IMG/VR virus record: IMGVR_UViG_3300030114_000526
Location: 1-42,859 of that record
DNA length: 42,859 nucleotides
Strand: one strand, 5' to 3'
From: a virus
Shown: in pieces, positions 22,600 to 34,876 of the stretch
Layout of the letters: every line of letters starts with the position of its first letter
Position numbering within the stretch: position 1 is the stretch's first letter
Program-made: the position numbers and the translations under genes
Notes under the pieces: model-generated
What the model was told of the DNA's origin: nothing
What the model saw: the letters and a program-made list of their open reading frames with translations, nothing else
Databases searched by the model: none

Positions 22600-22740
22600 T
22601 TATTGTTCTTCTAATCATGTAAGGAACTTTTCTATTGAAACTGACTCTATAACCATTGGCATAGAATTGTTTCTATAATAAGGGGCCTTAGGGGAGCTAT
22701 GTAAAAAACACCATATATATCTTAACATGAAAAAGAATAA
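22600..22740 (-). pseudogene. cox2: Displaced copy of the cox2 3' coding end
   Basis: Minus strand ends NSMPMVIESVSIEKFLTW.. then TAA at 22600-22602. The last 53 nt differ from the functional exon (23107-23205) at one base. Upstream, GVFY aligns with the FYG end of exon 6, at nearly the normal distance (38 versus 39 nt) from the SMP codons. The intervening CuA-binding CSEICG segment has decayed. It probably represents the original cox2 terminus, displaced when intron 6 and its downstream exon arrived. Confidence 0.8.
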
Positions 22741-23106: not shown

Positions 23107-26100
23107 TTATTGTTCTTCTAATCATGTAAGGAATTTTTCTATTGAAACTGACTCTATAACTATTGGCATGCTTGAGTGTAAAATACCACAGATTTCTGAA
23201 CATTGCACATTATCCCTACGTAATTTTAATGTAACCAATAAGTCCATATTAGTAGGCTAAGCTAAGCTACGCTACGCTAGGCAAGAGAAAATATCTTTAA
23301 CTTTTATCTAATTATTTATAAGTAAAATAATAATCTTTATAGATTTTACCATCTTTTAAACGAATATTTAATGTTTTTCTATCTAATTTGATATTTAAAG
23401 TATCAAAGTATTTAATTGTATCCATGATACTTTCAAATTCTCTCTCAAAATCTACCGGCGAAGTAGATTGCTTAGTGGCTCCTTTTACTAATATAGGTTT
23501 ATTTTTTCTGTTGACTTTTAATGAGTCAATATCAATTTTTAATTTTTTATATTCATCAATAATTAATCCCACTGCTTCAAAATCATCTGGTAAAGTTTTA
23601 TCTGAATATTTACATAAGAAATTATGAAACACTTTTTTATTTTTTATATATCTAGTTAGAGTGTTTCTTTTTATAATTAAACCTAAACCTCTTAAATACT
23701 CAACACAAGACGTTATAGAATCAAAATTTAAAGTATAACCTACAGAATCTGTAAATCTATTTCCATCTTTAACTTCTAATTCCACTAAAATACTTCTACG
23801 AGTACCTAATGTATACGTATCTTGTCTTTGTTTTTGCATTATACCTACCAACTCTTCTACAGAAATATTGCTTATTAAAGCTGTAGAGATAGGGTAGCTT
23901 AATAACAAGAATTTATTAAGATATAGTAATTTAGAATCTACAAACTTTTTACTAGTTTCAGGGTGTATTTTTAATGCTCTTTTTAACTCAATTTTAGATT
24001 TAGCTTGATAATAAAGAGTACTACATGTTTGATCATAAACATATACAGGATCACCTTTTGAAGATCCTGCATTAACAACTCTTAATGTATTCAAGTTAAA
24101 TTCTTTATTTAACAAATAATATTGTTCTAAAATTAAAGCGTCTTGATTACTAAATTTATTACTGTCTAATTTAAAGATTCTTAATTTAAAAGCTTTTAAC
24201 CCGTCTTTGTGTAATAAAGGTAAAAATATACCAACCCTTCGGCCTTGCACAGGCGTTAGCCCTGGGTGAGAGGCCAAAGGGAAATCTCCTTTAAAATAGT
24301 AATCCAATCTACGTCTTAGTAAATTAGATGAACCTACGTATTTCTGACCTGTATTTTTATGTATAAATACGTATACACCAGAGAAACCCTTATAGTTAGA
24401 TTCACCAGCTAATTCTCCTAAGAGTTTCTTATTTTCCGGTGTAGATACAGGAAGATCCATTTCAACACCTTTAACTTTTAATAATTTTTCTAATTGCGAG
24501 TCGGTGACGGATAAGTTTTGATTTAATAATATTCTATTGATTACAAATGAAGTAGCAGGTTTTCCGCTATTGACATGTTCTAATGCTAAAGACTCAGGCT
24601 TATTTACCAAAGATCTAACTGAACTAAAAGACCTAGTTAGGGGTACAGTGGCAATATAACCTAGTCCTATACGTTTAGCTGGCACAAATATGTGCTGCGC
24701 AAGCTGTGCGTGATTATTAGAAACACTTCTATTAATTGTACAATGCAACATTACAATAGTCTTTCCTAAGAAAGACAAGTGCTTTGTGTGTTTTATTGTA
24801 CAATAAAATTAAAAATATTATTTTACATTGAAAACTAGTTTAGCAAACTATTGTAGAGTTCCCTAAATATAATTGGCCGCCTTATCCCTCCAGCGCCCCT
24901 TCGGGCGATGGATCAGGAGCCGTATAACTAATATATGTTTATTTAACAAAAGATATGAATAAATACTCATATTTTTCTGTACCTTTTCAGGAAGGGGCTG
25001 ACTATATCTTAAGCATTATTAATACTAATAATACCAACCACCGTCTAGTCGATGAACTGCATACCAAATAATTTATACTTGGTACTTGGCTGCGGATTGC
25101 CCATTGAATAATAAATCTTGATTTTACCGTACCACGAGTCACTACCTGTGCCATAAATTATGTTACCATACTTACTTGGTTAAGATTCCTTTAGGGGTTC
25201 CCCGCAATTTGATGATATTTAACCATAGGTTCACTACAGTTCAGGCCATTATTCAATAAGACCATAAAAAGACCCTTCTCTATTAATAAGAACAGAAACT
25301 TGGTTTAATCTTCCAGGATCGAGCTACAACTTCGACCTAACAATTGTCCCCGAATAAAACATCCATTGTAAAAATTTGATGTGTGCTTTGGCTGTGGCTG
25401 ATTTTCAAAAGCCTCCAGATCCGGAGGATATGGAGCCACAGCAATATAATACTTATTACAAACTGTACATTATTTATCACTTTTAACTCCTTTGTTTTGG
25501 GTGTGAAGGACCCAAACCACAGCACACCCTGGGGGAAGGAAAATTTAAAGTAGTAACGGTTTTTTGTAAGCTAAATGCCCCCTAACCCTTCTTTATCAAT
25601 TAAAGGTGTCAAGAGTCCGGTATTTATATTACCTGCGCAAGCGTGCAAACCATCTTTATTAAAATATTGTTTAAATCTTCTAGTTAAGTCGTTACTTGAA
25701 CCTACATATTTATTATTTGTAAGTTTATGAGTAAAAATATAAACACCTGTCTTACTACGTCTAGATTGTGGTTTCCCTATTAAGGCAAGTAATAATGGAT
25801 ATGTTTCATCCGTAATAGGTAAATCAAATTTTACGCTTGGAAGGTTTAAAAGTTCGTCTAGTTCTTTTTTTTTGCTTATGCGGAGCATTCGCACCAAATA
25901 TTAACTTTTTGGTTAAGTAATACACTATTTGTAATTTCAGTTAATAGGTTTACCTTTAGCCGTATATTGTTGAACTAGACTGAAGGGACGATATGTTTTG
26001 CTGTTGTGAATATGTCTAGTTTGTGTATTCCTTTCCCCCCTACTTCTCCTTTTGCTTTGCTGGGCTACGCCCTAACGAAGGATATGGGGGGATAAGAAGA

Positions 26101-29100
26101 GGCAAAGAAAATGAGCCTTTGCTTGCTTTTTTATTTTTTTTTTTTAGAAAAAAAAAATCAGAAGCCACCGCGGAGCATACACAAGCTAGATACATGATTT
26201 AAATAAAAATCGAAACACAACTTTTACCTAAAGATTGATCCTTTAGTTCGTGCATGCTTCACTAGCAAAAGCAATAAACTAATAACCAATCTTTAAATTA
26301 GCTAGGCCAAGGCTGTTGTAGTAACTTTAATCTAGATTACTTTATAGATAAAATAAGCCTATCTATTTTATTTCTTCCTAGAACCGGTTTCCCGGCGACT
26401 AGAGTACACCTTACAACTATAAAAGTTGAAGAACCATCTACTCGTTGCTCTTTTACAGACGCTGTCTGATTTAGATCCGCGATCACCCATTTCAGTTACC
26501 TTCATCTCCCACGAGCGAAAGAAGCACACGTGGGTTTTCATGGCGTAAATAATTAACCATAAAAACTAGTGATATTACCATACCCTGAGTCATTAATCAG
26601 GCCAGATAGAAAGTTTCATATCTATCTTTGGTTACTAGAGCTTTAGGGCTTCCCCGGAGTTTGGCTCTTTATTGCACAGTTAATAAGTAGCCTACACTTA
26701 TTTTTTTATGCATCACATTTAATACCTAAAGAAGGGCAAGCAAAAGACGGAGCACAAATTTAACCTATTTTTAACTCTATACCTGAAAGATCCAAAACTT
26801 TTAAACATAAATAACTGCTGTAACACTACGATTAGTCGGTTCTATAATAAAGATAACCTTTATATGGTTTATCTTTATTTAAATGTTTAGTTAGCATATT
26901 CTTTGTTTTTTTTTCTTTTTTTAATTAATTAAAAAGAAGAAAAACAGGATGTGCTCCATTCCCATACCCCTCAGGGATCAGGGACAGAAAGAAAAAAAAA
27001 GCTTTAATGTTTTTACTCTTTAAGTATCATACTGCTGCAACTATACTAGGAAATTCAAAGGTTTCCCCTGTTTCAGCATCTTTTATTGTAATAGGTGAGC
27101 TAACTTTATCTTTTAAGGTATCACTTAAAAATAGTTTTCTTTTTTCTGAAATTAGATTAGCTAATTCTGAATTATTTAAATTAGCCTTTATAGCGCCCTC
27201 AATAGGAGCATTCGTAATTCTAAACTAAACTTATCAAAACCTTCTTTTTTGATTAAAGGTAGTAATTGTCCAGAGTTCTCTACATTAAAACCTTTAAAAG
27301 TAAAATATTAATCCAGTCCGCAGAAGTATTTTGCAGCGGATAAGCCAAAGCACAACAGCACAACAGCACACAAAGGGGATTTGGAATATGGATATGGGGC
27401 CACAACATGAAAACGCTACATTTGGCTGTCTTTATAGGGCTGCGAAGCTGCCCCAGACCATCAAATTAATAGAGGCTATCCAGTTTGGATTTCAGATCTC
27501 ATATATTTTGTCACAGGAAGTTTTGGGGTTTTTTATAGATTTAATATTTAGCATAGAGCAAATTACTAATATAATAGGAAAGGCTATTGTGCTAACTTTA
27601 ATTTAGGGTTACTTAGTTTCTCCCTAAAACCGGTTTCCCGGCGACTAGAGTACACCTTACAATCATAAATACACTTACATCTATAACTGAAGAACCATCT
27701 ACTCGTTGCTCTTTTACAAACAAATACTGTTTGATTTATTTGACTTAGATCCGCGATCACCCATTTCAATTACTATAATCTCTAGTGATATTACCATACC
27801 CTGAGTCATTAATCAGGCCAGATAGAAAGTTTCATATCTATCTTTGGTTACTAGAGCTTTAGGGCTTCCCCGGAGTTTGGCTCTTTAACACGAAAGTGAG
27901 TAACCTATTCTCACTTCTTATGTATAACATCCGCAGCGGTCACAATAAATCTGACGTGTGTTAATTCTGGGACAATAACTCTGTTATCCACTTCCAGCAT
28001 TCTTAATGCTCCATTCTCTAAATCGGATTCAGGTACTAAATATGAATCAAATTCTATGAATTCATCATCTGCATTTAAGAAGTCAGGGTATTGGTAACTT
28101 CAATATCATTGGTGCCCCTCTGCTAATATAGACATAGCTGGATCACTAACTTCCATTTGTGTTAAATAAAGATTTTATTCTTTAATTCCATATCTCTCGA
28201 TAAGGATCAGACTATGTCTTCGTAATAATAAGTAGGTTTTATTCCTTGTGGGGGCATACTTCGTTAGCCCTACCCAAGAAAAGAAAACGTATTTAAACTT
28301 GCAATAAGAATAAGGAAATGTATCTAAAGCTTTACGGGCCTATTATACCTTTTTATTCTCTAATGTAGTAATAATAAGAGCAGGAGAAAGGTAAAAGCAG
28401 AGGCCTCCTGCGGAGAAAGCCGGCTTATAAAGTTTAAATTCATCAACGGAGGATATTCTAGCTACCACATACAGCTTGCTTTTTCAGAATAAATAAGAAT
28501 ATGAACATGCTGTGGCGAAAGCATAGGAAGATTATTCTTGTAGATAAGTTTTATCTTCTAGTCGTTGAACGTTCTTGTTTGTCTTCAGCATTAGCTGAAG
28601 ATCTACTTTTAATAACAAGCTTCGCTTCAAATAAACTGAATAGCTTTTCAGTCTTCCTTGAAATTAATCCTCTTTAACCACACAATTGTGAGGTTGCATG
28701 GTGGACTAAAACTCTAATCCATTAAGTATAATAATTTAAATGAAGGGAAAGCAATTAATATTAAGATTAAAGCAGGCGTGATTGTCCATATTAATTCTAT
28801 CAGAGTCACAATTACATAAGCCTAAATACAGGCATGTTTTATTTTATGAAACCCTATTCACGTACTTGCGCCTGTTCAATACAACTCAGCCATATGAATG
28901 CAAATTATACCTATTTATTTATTTTTATTATTCGCAGAGGCCCCTTCTACGTTAGAGGTGGAACTAGTAAATTTGTAACGGTCTTTATGTAAAACCCCGG
29001 AATCCAAATATTTCCGCACAGTACTATGACTAATCCCTAGGTAAGCTCCAACCCTTCGAGCGGAAGCAAAACTACCTACTAACTTGAATCCTTCGACCGT

Positions 29101-32100
29101 AGCAACCCCTTCTGTAGGTAAACACTTTTCATAGACACATATAGTAATCCCCCGCTTAGACGCCATTAATTCCTTAGTCTCGTCTGAGGCTTTTCTACCC
29201 AAAGCTTTTTGTCTCATTATCTCCTTAGTCTCTTTACTATGAGACTTTCCATATAAAGGATTTAATGCTCCCCTTTTTTTTAGACTCTGGAGTTGCTTTG
29301 TCTCTTCCTTACGATTGTAGCCTCGGGGAAGAGCTATGGCTTTTTTTAGTATATTATATACCGGGTTTAACCTATCAAAGTAGTATTGCTCTCGTAGGGT
29401 TAAATCTGACACGGGACAGTATTCCAGAATTGTAAAAGAAAAACAAGGGTAGCCATATTTTTCAAATGCTCGCCCGATTATGGAGTTTTTATTTTTATTT
29501 AGCGTCGAAATATAACCGGGACGTTTATAATCCAAATATCTTTTAGCTAAATCTCCGGCCTGTCCTACGTAGATATCGAGAGTTTGTTTATTGGTTATCA
29601 TGTAAATTCCGGATTTACCTTTATTTTCTGCGATTATTGCCCGTTTATATGAAACGAAATCATCATATACTAACATAGGTTTATCATTATTTAAAGGGTT
29701 TGCCGATTTCATACCTTGTAATTTTAGCTCTTCTGACTTCTGTTGCGTTGCCTTTGGCTGCGAAGCTGCAACAGTATCTCCTGTTACCTCTGTTGCTTCT
29801 GTTGCTTCTGTTGCTTCTGTTGTAACAGAAGCAACTGGGCCTGCGCCACGGTCGTCACTTGAAGGGGTTGATGTTGAATAGTATTTTAATAAATAAGGGT
29901 TTAATTTGAATGCAAATAGAGGATGGGATTGAGACATTAAGCAAATTGAAGAACCGTTCCGACGACCGATACAAAGTTGCGAATCTGCGGCGCAACTTGT
30001 ATGGCGACGGGTCGACGGTTGTTTGTTTTTGGATGTCGTAATTACATAAACCTATTATTGTGGGTCCCCAAAAAACATATTGGATTTATTTTTATGTAAA
30101 GTTGGATTATATTTTCACTCAGCCAAATGTACTGGGCGTTTCACGCGTAATCTCTGAGGAGCCCCACTAATTTTTTAGATTATGGTTTCCTGCTGATTAT
30201 CCATTATTGCATCCATTAGAATTTTCACTAACCCTGATTTTTTTATTATTTTTTTAATTAGGGGCTAATAATATTAAACATTGCAGTATCTAAGGCATTA
30301 GGAGTTTCCAGCATACAGTGAAATTTTATTCATAGTTATTCCAAGTTTATTTAGATGAAAATTTATATCTGTCTTTATATACCATTCCAGATCTCATATA
30401 TTTTGTCACAGTACTACCACTTATCTCTAAAAATTTAGCAGCTCTTCTGACTGAAACAAAACTACCTATTAATTTAAGTCCTTCTTTTGAAGATTTCTCA
30501 TAGATATTTACAGGATTCCTCCGTGATTTACTCATTTTTTCTTTAGTTTCACATGAATGTTTTCTATTTAAAGCTTTCTGTCTCATAAGCTCTTTAGTAT
30601 CCACATTGTGTATTTTACCATAAAAATAGTTGTTTACACCTTCTCTCATTAAACTCATTTTTTGCTTGGTTTCTACTGTATGAGTTTTCCCAAATCTAGC
30701 AGATTTAATTCCAGTGTAAACTCCTTTCAAGGCTTTACTTCTTTTAGCTTTACTTTCATCTGTATGCTTATATCCTTGAGAACTTCCTGCAATCTTTAGC
30801 ATATTATACTGTGGATCTGATCTATCGAAGTAATATTGCTCTTTTACCAGTAGGTCAGATTTGTCGCAATATTCTAATATAGAGACAGAAAAATTAGCAT
30901 ATCCGTATTTAATTAAAGCTCTACTTATTATAAACCCTCCCTTACTCTTCAAATAGCTAATGGTATAATATTTTCTAAATCTTTTGCTTAAATCCCCTGA
31001 TTGTCCTATATAAGTAAATTAGTTCACATGTAAATACCAGACTTACCTATGTTTTCATTAATGATATCCTTTTTCATAGAGTAAGCATTTGCGTAAATTT
31101 TTGTTGAAGAGCTACTAATATCTTTATCCACGTTTAATTCTTTTTCAGCGTGGTTATCATCTTTATTGTTAGTTGAGTAAGCCCGTATAGGAGTAAATAC
31201 TACATTACTTATGGGGCTCCTAACATTGGAATACTTTTGAACAGGCACATCTTTACCATGGTTAAGATATTTATGGCTTATAGGTGATTTACTGCTAATA
31301 TAGTTTCTTACTATGGATATCAATATTCAACCCACACCAAACAATATTATAACTAAATAAAACATAATATTATCCGTCCGTGCATACAGCTTTAATTAAC
31401 CAAAAACATTAAAAAAAAGAGTAAATATAATTGTAAAAACTCTAAGTATACACGGTAACTTTAATTTTGAGGAACTTGCATTCACTTTAGGTAACCGGTC
31501 TAACCTAGCGGGGCAGATTTCTACATAAAAGCTCTGTAATCCATCCCCCCCCCGTCCCGCCGCCTTAATTCAATTACCCATCATTCATTCCTGTTACATG
31601 GCGGGCTACGTGAAGTAATACAAAAGATTTCATTCTGTATTACGCGAACTTTAAACAAGCTCTGCTTGTTTAAATTAATCTAACTTTTAAGGTTAATTCT
31701 ATTTATAAAAATATTGACTATTTTTTGGGATTTTCCTCCTGATCCTGGTCCTCCTCGGAAGATGGTGTTCTCTTGAAAGATTCATTCTTGATTTTATTTT
31801 GGCTATTTCTTCCACTCCTTCTTTAGTTAGATGAGCTTTATGTGTCACTAATTTAGCTACCGCTTTGAAACCCTCGTAATCCTTAGCTTTAGACCCTATT
31901 AGAGGGTAATTATCAAAGAAAGGAATTATATTACCTGTTAGATTAGACAATTTAACAACAACAAAATTTACAGCCGACGCTCCTGAATGATTTTCTACTC
32001 TCCCACAATTAAAGAAAAGAATTAAACTGTTCATTAACGTAGTATCTCTGCTATGCTGAGTAACTTGAATACCTAATGTAACGCGAGGTTTCCTTTTATC

Positions 32101-33334
32101 CTTGTTGTATGCTATTTTTACAAAAAAACAACCTTCAGCTTCCGTAAACCCTACTACTCAGTTTGGGTCTCTTATTTCCGAAGATACAGCTAAAGGTATT
32201 GTATAGGGGGTAACATCTGAAAAAGCTATTTTTAAGGTTTCCGGTAGACCTTTATTCATAGAAGCTCTTATACTAACGATTTTACTAAACCCCTCGTTAG
32301 TTAAATGTCCTTTATTTTTAATTAGCTCTAATGCTTCTTTAAAAAGTAGGTAATCAATTTGCTTTTTAGTTATCAAAGGATAACTGTCAAAATGCTTTAT
32401 GATTACATCTAAATCTTTGATAGAAAAAACTCTAAACTGAGCAAATTTACCTTTTTTTAATCCTACTGCACCAATGCCACCAAAGTATGACTGTATTTTT
32501 ACCAATAATTCTATATCCTTTTTGTGTAAAACCATCGAAAACCCTGGATTAACGTAATAGCCATTTTTATTTTTAGAATTTTTTCCTATAGATAGATGAA
32601 AACAAGCTTCACCGTCCGAAAAGCCAGTAACAAAAAAAGGGGTTTAACTCCCCTTTGGCGGTATTTTTAACATTTTTCATATATTTATCTAATACATTAT
32701 ACTCTTATAGTACCTTTCTTAACGCCTCTTTATTAACCTTGCTGACTCAATAGAAGAGGTACATATATTAAAAAGAGTAGATATTATTAAATTGAGATAC
32801 ATAAAGCAAACTGCCCATCAACATCTCCACGTTTTTATGACATAAACAAAAAAAAAGTAATTGCTTGCCTAATTTTTTTAGGCAAAACTTATTTAAAATA
32901 AGCCAATGTTTCTCTCAAAAACAGGTTTCCCAGCGACTAGAGCACACCTTACAGAATCTAACTAAGACCCTGAAGAACCGTCTGCTCGTTGCTCTTTTAC
33001 AGACAAATATCGTCTGATTTAGATCCGCGATAACCCATTTCCATTTCTGTCATCTCCCACTTGATTCAAGTAGGTTTTCATTGTTTATGAAAACTAGTGA
33101 TCTTACCATACCCTGAGTCATTAATCAGGCCGGTTATAGCATTTCCGTTATAACTTTGGTTACCAGAGCTTTAGGGCGTCCCCGGAGTTTGGCTCTTGTA
33201 CACAATTTTTGTTAAATTTCATGTAATTCAACTAATCCTTCCATCTGTGGAGTAGCACTATCCTGAAAATAGAGACCTCAAGGTCTAGGGGTATCACAAT
33301 TGTGTATAATATTTGAAAACAAGAAATTTAACAT
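23107..33334 (-). CDS. cox2: Cytochrome c oxidase subunit 2, 7 exons / 6 introns
   Basis: Complex IV subunit that accepts electrons from cytochrome c at its CuA site in the intermembrane space. Exons 5' to 3': 33334-33221, 31374-31255, 28806-28717, 28153-27920, 26747-26708, 25319-25261, 23205-23107. Together they make 756 nt (251 aa, the usual length) with frame kept throughout. Features: two N-terminal transmembrane helices (MFYLVIILFGVGWILIS; ALILILIAFPSFKLLYLM), the electron-entry motif EGHQWYWSYQYPD, the first CuA ligand in ADVIHSFACPS (exons 4/5), and the C-E-C-H-M ligands in CSEICGILHSSM (exon 7). TGA encodes several Trp. All 5' exons end in T and all introns in G. Confidence 0.96.
23206..25260 (-). 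mobile_element. cox2 intron 6, group I, with GIY-YIG ORF
   Basis: Inserted in FYG|QCSE. Textbook core on the minus strand: P (AATTGCGGGGAACCCCTAAA, near 25195-25216), Q (GGCAATCCGCAG, near 25086-25102), R (GTTCATCGACTAGACGGTGG, near 25038-25058), S (AAGATATAGTCAGCCCC, near 24996-25013). The ORF lies downstream of S. Confidence 0.88.
23312..24751 (-). CDS. Full-length GIY-YIG homing endonuclease, cox2 intron 6
   Basis: 479 residues from ATG at 24749-24751; the frame is open a little further upstream from a TTG. An N-terminal helper region (LEKLLKVKGVEMDLPVS) precedes the nuclease: GVYVFIHKNTGQKYVGSS, LLRRRL, and the family signature LEQYYLLNKEFNLNT. Next are a NUMOD1-like unit (VYVYDQTCSTLYYQAKSK) and two repeated C-terminal binding units (ITSCVEYLRGLGLIIKRNTL; IKYFDTLNIKLDRKTLN). 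Best preserved member of a family that also occurs, shortened or broken, in cox1 intron 3 and cox2 introns 4 and 5. It probably drove the exchange of the cox2 3' end. Confidence 0.88.
   Translation of the reverse strand: MLHCTINRSVSNNHAQLAQHIFVPAKRIGLGYIATVPLTRSFSSVRSLVNKPESLALEHVNSGKPATSFVINRILLNQNLSVTDSQLEKLLKVKGVEMDLPVSTPENKKLLGELAGESNYKGFSGVYVFIHKNTGQKYVGSSNLLRRRLDYYFKGDFPLASHPGLTPVQGRRVGIFLPLLHKDGLKAFKLRIFKLDSNKFSNQDALILEQYYLLNKEFNLNTLRVVNAGSSKGDPVYVYDQTCSTLYYQAKSKIELKRALKIHPETSKKFVDSKLLYLNKFLLLSYPISTALISNISVEELVGIMQKQRQDTYTLGTRRSILVELEVKDGNRFTDSVGYTLNFDSITSCVEYLRGLGLIIKRNTLTRYIKNKKVFHNFLCKYSDKTLPDDFEAVGLIIDEYKKLKIDIDSLKVNRKNKPILVKGATKQSTSPVDFEREFESIMDTIKYFDTLNIKLDRKTLNIRLKDGKIYKDYYFTYK
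25571..25888 (-). pseudogene. N-terminal GIY-YIG fragment, cox2 intron 5
   Basis: 105 residues from ATG at 25886-25888. Leader LDELLNLPSVKFDLPI, nuclease motif GVYIFTHKLTNNKYVGSS, LTRRFKQYF, then a stop straight after PLIDKEGLGGI. Relatives continue for hundreds of residues from this point. Truncated, so it lacks the DNA-binding half and part of the nuclease fold. Confidence 0.8.
26047..26086. repeat. GC-rich hairpin element in cox2 intron 5
   Basis: TCCTTTTGCTTTGCTGGGC, tac, GCCCTAACGAAGGATATGG: same family as 541-577. Confidence 0.65.
27004..27310 (-). pseudogene. Middle and C-terminal GIY-YIG remnants, cox2 intron 4
   Basis: Reads GQLLPLIKKEGFDKFSLEL, then shifts frame to APIEGAIKANLNNSELANLI and KLFLSDTLKDKVSSPITI, ending near WYLKSKNIKA. 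The first part matches the segment after the nuclease motif and the last part matches the C-terminal unit of the cox2 intron 6 and cox1 intron 3 enzymes. The GIY-YIG motif itself is absent, so this is debris. Confidence 0.65.
27345..27472. repeat. 128-bp dispersed repeat, copy A
   Basis: Matches 34749-34876 in the same orientation with a single difference (A/G). Contains AGCACAACAGCACAACAGC and GGGCTGCGAAGCTGCCCC. Copy A lies in cox2 intron 4, copy B in a tRNA spacer. Confidence 0.9.
28154..28716 (-). other. cox2 intron 3, group I, without ORF
   Basis: 563 nt inserted in YLMD|EVSD. R (GTTCAACGACTAGAAG) near 28549-28572, S (GAAGACATAGTCTGATCC) near 28205-28222. The R/S style matches the ORF-less atp9 intron. 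No HE remnant is recognised. Confidence 0.8.
28915..29937 (-). CDS. GIY-YIG endonuclease with NUMOD3, cox2 intron 2 (3' copy)
   Basis: 340 residues from ATG 29935-29937 to the stop at 28915. N-terminal low-complexity linker with a (TEA)n repeat, encoded by a TGTTGCTTC microsatellite, and a long Ser/Thr-rich leader. Nuclease motif GIYMITNKQTLDIYVGQA, then LAKRYLDY, and signature LREQYYFDRLNPVYNIL. NUMOD3 repeats follow (NPLYGKSHSKETKEIM; RKASDETKELMASKRG), then a terminal helix-turn-helix (SARRVGAYLGISHSTV). No TGA codon is needed. Intact and probably functional. Confidence 0.87.
   Translation of the reverse strand: MSQSHPLFAFKLNPYLLKYYSTSTPSSDDRGAGPVASVTTEATEATEATEVTGDTVAASQPKATQQKSEELKLQGMKSANPLNNDKPMLVYDDFVSYKRAIIAENKGKSGIYMITNKQTLDIYVGQAGDLAKRYLDYKRPGYISTLNKNKNSIIGRAFEKYGYPCFSFTILEYCPVSDLTLREQYYFDRLNPVYNILKKAIALPRGYNRKEETKQLQSLKKRGALNPLYGKSHSKETKEIMRQKALGRKASDETKELMASKRGITICVYEKCLPTEGVATVEGFKLVGSFASARRVGAYLGISHSTVRKYLDSGVLHKDRYKFTSSTSNVEGASANNKNK
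29952..30020. repeat. GC-rich compound inverted repeat
   Basis: Arms 29952-29981 and 29991-30020 pair over AACCGT/ACGGTT and ATACAA-GTTGCG/CGCAAC-TTGTAT, with a less perfect GC middle. It is much richer in GC than the surrounding intron. Confidence 0.75.
30347..31254 (-). pseudogene. GIY-YIG endonuclease, cox2 intron 2 (5' copy), broken in the motif
   Basis: Continuous with exon 2 (LNHG|KDVPVQKYS..), reaching GKSGIYMWTN, then a short deletion and frame break at 31005-31025. The protein resumes at TYIGQSGDLSKRFRKYY and continues through ISRALIKYGYANFSVSIL, signature KEQYYFDRSDPQYNML, NUMOD3 repeats and a terminal helix-turn-helix to the stop at 30347. It is the paralogue of the intact ORF at 28915-29937. 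The break lies between the GIY and YIG blocks, so the nuclease should be dead. Confidence 0.8.
31375..33220 (-). mobile_element. cox2 intron 1, group I, with LAGLIDADG ORF
   Basis: Inserted in VELH|DNIM. The core at 32916-33197 is the same type as introns 4 and 5 but more diverged. Exon end TACAT pairs with GTGTA in AATTGTGTACAAGAGCC. The HE gene is downstream of the core. Confidence 0.85.
31699..32680 (-). pseudogene. LAGLIDADG endonuclease with a T7 frameshift, cox2 intron 1
   Basis: ATG at 32678-32680 gives MKNVKNTAKGELNPFF. The next codons are out of frame because the homopolymer has seven Ts where six would continue VTGFSDGEACFHLSIG (first motif). From there the frame is open, with TGA as Trp, through WVVGFTEAEGCFFV (second motif) to TAG at 31699-31701. 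Both motifs keep an acidic residue. A single-base slip in a T tract is either a real inactivating mutation or a sequencing error. Confidence 0.75.
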
Positions 33335-34748: not shown

Positions 34749-34876
34749 CCAAAGCACAACAGCACAACAGCACACAAAGGGGATTTGGAATATGGATATG
34801 GGGCCACAGCATGAAAACGCTACATTTGGCTGTCTTTATAGGGCTGCGAAGCTGCCCCAGACCATCAAATTAATAG
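34749..34876. repeat. 128-bp dispersed repeat, copy B
   Basis: Second copy of 27345-27472 with one base difference, in the spacer between trnH and trnM. The adjoining 200 nt (34877-35085) hold no recognised gene. Confidence 0.9.

What the first reader, a model, noticed from the sequence alone, without database searches (positions are those of the whole stretch)
25320..33220. One intron family at three cox2 sites, with guide sequences matched to each site
Introns 1, 4 and 5 share a core type (AACTCCGGGGA..CCC, GGTATGGTAATATC, AGTCGCCGGGAAACCGG); introns 4 and 5 are identical over 106 nt and lie one 40-nt exon apart. The exon ends are TACAT, ACAT and GCAT, and the guides just before AAGAGCC are GTGTA, GTGT and GTGC, so each guide pairs with its own site. 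This looks like recent spread to a nearby site, for example by reverse splicing, with the guide adjusted. Both introns carry only broken, complementary GIY-YIG pieces (N-terminal in 5, later parts in 4), so the spread probably did not need an intact local HE.
Basis: partly seen in the sequence, partly recalled or inferred. Interest (0 to 1): 0.78.

Follow-up and report, generated by a model that had tools for sequence, protein, structure and literature searches.

The report
Mosaic sibling introns in fungal cox2
Three self-splicing introns in one fungal mitochondrial gene do belong to one family, but that family also sits in other genes of other fungi, and the identical stretch shared by two neighbouring introns looks like a copied patch (gene conversion) and not a whole intron that recently jumped.

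Summary
cox2 introns I1 (33220-31375), I4 (27919-26748) and I5 (26707-25320) are one group IC2-like ribozyme family. I4 and I5 share 106 identical nt across a 40-nt exon, and each guide pairs with its own exon end (5, 4 and 5 bp). I found ten close relatives in other fungal mtDNA, at nad4, two atp6 sites and cox3; all 13 introns follow CAT and have a GTG-type guide. In the 3' half of the core they tend to group by insertion site (nad4, atp6-a), not by genome. The I4=I5 identity is a patch: 0/103 differences in P3-P5a but 17/129 in the rest of the core (p about 4e-5; 1e-4 weighted by site variability), with a roughly 58-nt P5 indel and different P1 loops. In its 3' half I5 is slightly closer to another fungus's nad4 intron than to I4. 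Segmental gene conversion starting at the guide explains this better than recent whole-intron spread. A clean P5-domain swap between two atp6 introns on one contig (L026) shows similar modular exchange. Guide matching is required for splicing, so it is not evidence of targeting. Ordinary family, somewhat unusual evolution.

The parts
31375..33220 (-). cox2 intron I1 (after GAATTACAT, VELH|DNIM), group IC2-like, with LAGLIDADG ORF
33199..33203 (-). I1 guide GTGTA (5 bp with TACAT)
31699..32643 (-). I1 LAGLIDADG ORF (314 codons open, no start codon at its head; likely 1-nt shift in a T7 run)
   Evidence: relatives include HE genes in nad4 introns of L031 and L017, 46-47%
26748..27919 (-). cox2 intron I4 (after ATACAT, ADVIH|SF)
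   Evidence: Rfam Intron_gpI 33.3 bits, E 6.7e-5, below the gathering score of 50
27888..27891 (-). I4 guide GTGT (4 bp with ACAT; -5 mismatched)
27782..27887 (-). 106-nt block identical to I5: P3 5' strand to P5a 3' strand
26925..27310 (-). I4 remnants of a GIY-YIG gene (middle and C-terminal parts)
   Evidence: 43-48% identity to the HE gene in the cox2 intron of L021
26708..26747 (-). 40-nt cox2 exon between I4 and I5 ([13 protein letters not shown] + T)
25320..26707 (-). cox2 intron I5 (after GATGCAT, DA(Y)P)
   Evidence: Rfam 31.3 bits, E 2.8e-4, below gathering
26673..26677 (-). I5 guide GTGCA (5 bp with TGCAT)
26566..26671 (-). 106-nt block identical to I4
25571..25900 (-). I5 remnant of a GIY-YIG gene (N-terminal part, Pfam E 1.6e-8)
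   Evidence: 54% identity to the HE gene in the cox2 intron of L021

Best explanation
I1, I4 and I5 are members of a fungal mitochondrial group IC2-like intron family that has lodged at several sites ending in CAT| in cox2, nad4, atp6 and cox3. Splicing uses a guide just 5' of P3: its GTG pairs with the invariant CAT| and its fourth base co-varies with the exon. The introns at the different cox2 sites come from an older dispersal. How they first reached new sites is not shown; reverse splicing is plausible because only a few nt of exon are shared between sites. The 106-nt identity of I4 and I5 is a later local event: mtDNA recombination (gene conversion) between the two neighbouring introns copied the P3-P5a segment of one onto the other. 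The tract starts at the guide, so each intron kept its own P1 and still splices. Exchange is probably seeded by the conserved core sequences on either side of the variable P5 domain. Shown: family membership, guide pairing, covarying fold, patchiness of the identity, and a P5 swap in a relative. Inferred: recombination as the agent, its direction, selection on the guide, and splicing itself.
For: (1) Patchiness: I4/I5 differ at 0/103 sites in P3-P5a and 17/129 in the rest (Fisher 4e-5; 0/103 against 14/105 with limits taken from the fold, 7.7e-5). The 105-column run has p 1e-4 when differences are placed by site variability; the next longest run among the 36 pairs is 69. The median A/B divergence ratio for other pairs is 0.77, so the 5' half is only mildly more conserved. 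(2) Mosaic affinities: in the 3' half I5 is 11/105 from G1_nad4 but 14/105 from I4. Its P5 insertion is like I1 and the nad4 introns of two other records, while I4 lacks it, like atp6-b. (3) Site lineages: nad4 with nad4 100/98, atp6-a with atp6-a 95/87. (4) Parallel case: X_atp6b1 and X_atp6b2 on L026 differ at 1 position over the first 63 nt and at none over 42 nt after the P5 domain, but their P5 domains are about 60% alike; the b1 P5 domain is 77% like an intron of a more distant subfamily. (5) The fold is supported: 22 of 56 pairs show changes on both sides, 0/500 shuffles as high. (6) Precedent: mosaic group I introns from gene conversion in yeast mtDNA (PMC4059233).
Against: No intron at the I4 or I5 site was found in another fungus, so the older age of the two insertions rests on divergence and on the site grouping of other members. 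In the 3' half I4 is still I5's nearest or near-nearest relative, so a moderately old I4-I5 duplication remains possible beneath the patch. The sample is 13 introns, and most tree branches are weak. Direction and agent of the exchange are not shown.
Confidence: 0.74

Rival explanations
1. Recent whole-intron spread from one cox2 site to the neighbouring one by reverse splicing, followed by guide adjustment.
For: 106 identical nt one exon apart. The sites share only CAT plus 1-2 bases, which fits the short 5'-exon identity (4-8 nt) used as evidence for reverse splicing in rDNA (PMC1299323). The GTGTA guide of I1 already pairs over 5 bp with all three cox2 sites (matrix).
Against: Divergence is not uniform: 0% against 13%, a ~58-nt indel, different P1 loops, no protein-level match between the HE remnants of the two introns. 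In the 3' half I5 is about as close to introns in nad4 and atp6 of other fungi.
Confidence: 0.13
2. DNA-level transposition: a GIY-YIG or LAGLIDADG endonuclease with relaxed specificity cut the new sites, and repair inserted the intron.
For: Both introns keep remnants of one GIY-YIG gene type, also found in a cox2 intron 9 nt upstream of the I4 site in another fungus (L021). I1 carries LAGLIDADG. A CAT tendency at targets of HE-bearing introns is noted in PMC7487136.
Against: The exons flanking the three sites share little beyond CAT, too little for ordinary homing. It does not explain a patch of identity that ends at the guide.
Confidence: 0.09
3. No special event: I4 and I5 are moderately old sister introns and the P3-P5 half is identical by constraint or chance, or through assembly consensus.
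For: The 5' half is mildly more conserved than the 3' half in the family (ratio 0.77). No reads are at hand for this contig.
Against: Every other pair has at least 10 differences in that segment; the variability-weighted test gives 1e-4. The variable P5b stem is identical too. The flanks of the two copies are different and unique, so the order of the path is unambiguous.
Confidence: 0.04

Closest known systems
Group IC2 introns of fungal mtDNA at nad4P505, atp6P572 and cox3P333 (e.g. Purpureocillium atypicola, PMC11509744; atp6 intron 2 of Hypomyces aurantius, IC2, PMC4964425)
   Same: The relatives found here sit at what appear to be these sites (nad4 ACA T|, atp6 LAANI|, cox3 FFH|S; numbering inferred) and have an IC-type core with an extended P5.
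   Different: The window carries the family at three cox2 sites (about 108, 552 and 592 in the Tolypocladium numbering, my estimate). None of these three names, or of the +3 variants tried, was found in the paper library.
Mosaic omega introns by gene conversion in yeast mt LSU rRNA (Wu and Hao 2014, PMC4059233)
   Same: Segments of one group I intron have different histories; explained by gene conversion.
   Different: There the exchange is between introns at one site in different strains or species; here it is between two introns at different sites of one gene in one molecule, with guides kept apart.
Reverse-splicing spread of group I introns in fungal rDNA (PMC1299323)
   Same: Related introns at heterologous sites that share only a few 5'-exon bases.
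   Different: mtDNA protein genes; HE genes or remnants present; the I4/I5 identity is segmental, which reverse splicing does not predict.
HE/intron co-evolution, 'aenaon' model (PMC7487136)
   Same: CAT tendency at the exon side of targets; recombination and transposition invoked.
   Different: Based on HE trees; guides and intra-genome segment exchange are not analysed in the passages read.

Membership tests
Group I intron (IC2-like) | P3-P9 core with a P7 and P3 pseudoknot, supported by covariation | tested here: met
   95.2% of cells paired, 22 pairs with both-side changes, 0/500 shuffles as high
Group I intron (IC2-like) | U at the end of the 5' exon pairing G in the guide; G at the intron end | tested here: met
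   exon ends in T opposite guide G in all 13; I1, I4 and I5 can be cut so that they end in G
Group I intron (IC2-like) | Rfam Intron_gpI score above gathering (50) | tested here: not met
   I4 33.3 bits (6.7e-5), I5 31.3 bits (2.8e-4), I1 not listed at E 0.1. This is one general model for a very diverse class and not a defining feature; the covariation test carries the assignment
Group I intron (IC2-like) | extended P5 domain (IC subgroup); exact subtype IC2 | tested here: inconclusive
   P5a/P5b/P5c found; subtype label from literature at equivalent sites, no subtype model run
Group I intron (IC2-like) | self-splicing | not testable with these tools
   needs RNA
Gene conversion between paralogous introns | identity confined to a tract, flanks diverged | tested here: met
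Gene conversion between paralogous introns | donor and recipient alleles without the tract in relatives | not tested
   no other fungus with introns at both sites in the collections
Recent reverse-splicing transposition | near-uniform identity over the whole intron | tested here: not met
Recent reverse-splicing transposition | target shares the 4-6 nt guide complement only | tested here: met
   (not specific: required for splicing in any case)

The most novel reading that the evidence does not exclude
Group I ribozymes in fungal mtDNA evolve by domain shuffling: conserved core blocks on either side of the P5 domain act as recombination handles, so introns at different sites and even of different subfamilies trade P5 (or P3-P5) modules while selection on P1 keeps each guide private. 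I4/I5 in the window and the two atp6 introns of L026 would be two snapshots of this.
Probability: 0.4. Interest if true: 0.6.

Novelty: new variant of a known kind. Interest (0 to 1): 0.42.

Why it matters
Identity between introns at neighbouring sites is easily read as fresh transposition. Here a family comparison shows that it is patchy and begins at the guide, so segment exchange must be ruled out before reverse splicing is invoked. If module exchange is general, single-tree histories of mitochondrial introns mix several histories, and P5 domains could be tested as interchangeable parts.

Tried and rejected
Phage collection: no match for the I4 core or for COX2. E. coli genomes: no match for the I5 core. 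A 24-nt exact core pattern gave nothing in viral contigs; looser patterns gave G001, L026, L028, L030 and L029 (in G002). A survey of cox2 sites in other fungi was limited: only G002 carried a usable cox2, with a different, distant intron 9 nt upstream of the I4 site. RNAalifold alone mispaired P3/P4 because of the pseudoknot; the fold was written by hand and counted. A tree on segment A alone is unresolved. A twintron or exon-skipping reading of I4-exon-I5 was rejected because the 40-nt exon codes for conserved COX2 residues. No literature was found naming introns at the three estimated cox2 positions (open-access papers only).

Full report
What the window is. All genes identified are on the minus strand and read with code 4: cox1, cox2, atp9, tRNAs and part of the rRNA large subunit. 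The record is a fungal mitochondrial fragment in IMG/VR, not a virus (inference from gene content). cox2 has seven exons.

Observation. Splice sites were set by aligning exons to COX2 and by translating the spliced sequence. I1 is 33220-31375, I4 27919-26748, the exon between I4 and I5 is 40 nt (26747-26708), and I5 is 26707-25320. The 106-nt identical block is exact (27887-27782 = 26671-26566). The guides and exon ends are as reported: I1 GTGTA/TACAT, I4 GTGT/ACAT (the fifth position is T against T, a mismatch), I5 GTGCA/TGCAT.

The family elsewhere. nhmmer with the three cores found ten further close members. G001 (IMGVR_UViG_3300023063_000046): nad4, atp6 at ...IEF| (atp6-a) and atp6 at ...LAANI| (atp6-b). 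NZ_CP110133/NZ_CP110134, filed as Peribacillus plasmids but carrying cox1, cob, cox3 and atp6 with introns, hence fungal mtDNA: nad4, cox3, atp6-b. L026 (IMGVR_UViG_3300031938_000405): atp6-b twice and atp6-a. L031 (contig NZ_BMMB01000029.1 of a Paenibacillus assembly): nad4. Every one lies after CAT| and has a GTG-type guide. Exon base -4 is A, G or T and guide base 4 is T, C or A to match in 13 of 13; base -5 matches in 8 of 13. Shuffling guides among members gives as much pairing in 0.6% of cases (members are related, so this is not a strict p value). Because P1 pairing is needed for splicing, this is what any set of working introns at these sites must show.

Fold. A hand-written P3-P9 fold with P3 and P7 as a pseudoknot pairs 95.2% of cells on nine members, 22 pairs change on both sides, and no shuffle of 500 reaches this. 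P3 begins directly after the guide (AAGAGCC with GGTTCTT). The identical block of I4 and I5 runs from the P3 5' strand, through the P4 and P5 5' strands, to the P5a 3' strand.

Patchy identity. In P3-P5a I4 and I5 differ at 0 of 103 sites, in the rest of the core at 17 of 129 (Fisher 4e-5), or 14 of 105 with limits taken from the fold (7.7e-5). I5 also has about 58 nt of extra P5 sequence that resembles I1 and the nad4 introns of L023 and L031, while I4 resembles atp6-b there. Weighting by how variable each site is among other members, a run this long has p 1e-4. For the other pairs the two halves diverge at similar rates (median ratio 0.77). In the 3' half I5 is closer to the nad4 intron of G001 (11/105) than to I4 (14/105). 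The block starts directly after the four paired guide bases in I4 and after GTGCAA in I5. Pairing counts show that I5's guide would give only 3 bp at I4's site, so a tract that ran further from I5 into I4 would weaken P1; this is an inference about why the tract stops where it does.

Site lineages. In trees of the 3' core the nad4 introns of L023 and L031 group (100/98), as do the atp6-a introns of G001 and L026 (95/87); most other branches are weak. Holding I1+I4+I5 together costs 8.8-9.1 lnL units (AU p 0.05-0.07); I4+I5 together is neither supported nor rejected. I1 carries a LAGLIDADG gene whose better matches include the genes in the nad4 introns of L031 and L017 (46-47% identity), and its guide GTGTA is the nad4 guide. 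So I1 looks nearer to the nad4 lineage, though the branch is weak. I4's guide GTGTT is identical to that of atp6-b in G001.

A parallel case. On L026 two atp6-b introns differ at one of their first 63 positions and at none of 42 positions after P5, but their P5 domains are about 60% alike. The b1 P5 domain is 77% identical to that of a more distant intron on L028, and 79% to atp6-b of NZ_CP110134. This is a clean exchange of one structural domain, and it was not in the finding.

HE remnants. I5 keeps the N-terminal and I4 the middle and C-terminal parts of one GIY-YIG gene type. Both match the gene in a cox2 intron of G002 that sits 9 nt upstream of the I4 site (positions 821-1093 of that stretch for I5; 1025-1117 and 1379-1667 for I4). 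They overlap over PLI(K)KEG but show no protein-level match to each other in that test. In I4 a 128-nt dispersed repeat (27345-27472, 99.2% identical to 34749-34876) stands where the N-terminal part would be.

Mechanism. I commit to an older dispersal of the family to CAT| sites (route not shown; reverse splicing plausible) plus a later segmental exchange between I4 and I5 by mtDNA recombination. Gene conversion that makes mosaic group I introns is documented in yeast mtDNA (PMC4059233). The reverse-splicing criteria of PMC1299323 fit the dispersal but not the patch.

Known or new. The sites nad4P505, atp6P572 and cox3P333 are recorded as IC2 sites in Purpureocillium atypicola (PMC11509744), and a CAT tendency is noted in PMC7487136. 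What I did not find described in the open-access papers searched is an exchange tract between two introns of one gene that begins at the guide, nor the P5 swap at atp6. The paper search was limited, so absence there is weak evidence.

Noticed in passing
L026:1335-1619 and L026:9846-10172: Two atp6-b introns on one contig, nearly identical outside the P5 domain but with P5 domains of two different subfamilies; the contig also carries two atp6 copies with different intron content.
   Followed up: yes
window 27345-27472 and 34749-34876: 128-nt direct repeat at 99.2% identity, one copy inside I4 next to its broken HE gene, the other between tRNA genes.
   Followed up: partly
window 22600-22662 and 23107-23169: Duplicate of 63 nt of the cox2 3' end (97% identity) about 500 nt downstream of the gene end, as left by intron or HE-borne replacement of a 3' exon.
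   Followed up: no
window 27493-27516 and 30388-30411: 24 identical nt shared between I4 and the HE ORF of intron 2.
   Followed up: no
L022 (NZ_CP110134.1), L023 (NZ_CP110133.1), L031 (NZ_BMMB01000029.1): Public records labelled Peribacillus plasmids and a Paenibacillus contig that carry intron-bearing fungal mitochondrial genes; probably contamination. NZ_CP053901.1 (filed as Proteus mirabilis) holds a COX2 74% identical to the window's and may be another case, not examined.
   Followed up: partly
L017:10235-10396 and L017:19396-19518: Two degenerate copies of the cox2 N-terminal exon in G001 away from any intact cox2.
   Followed up: no
window 32643 (minus strand): The I1 LAGLIDADG frame shifts by one base at a T7 run (ELNPFF then VTGFSDGEA), either a recent lesion or a sequencing error.
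   Followed up: no
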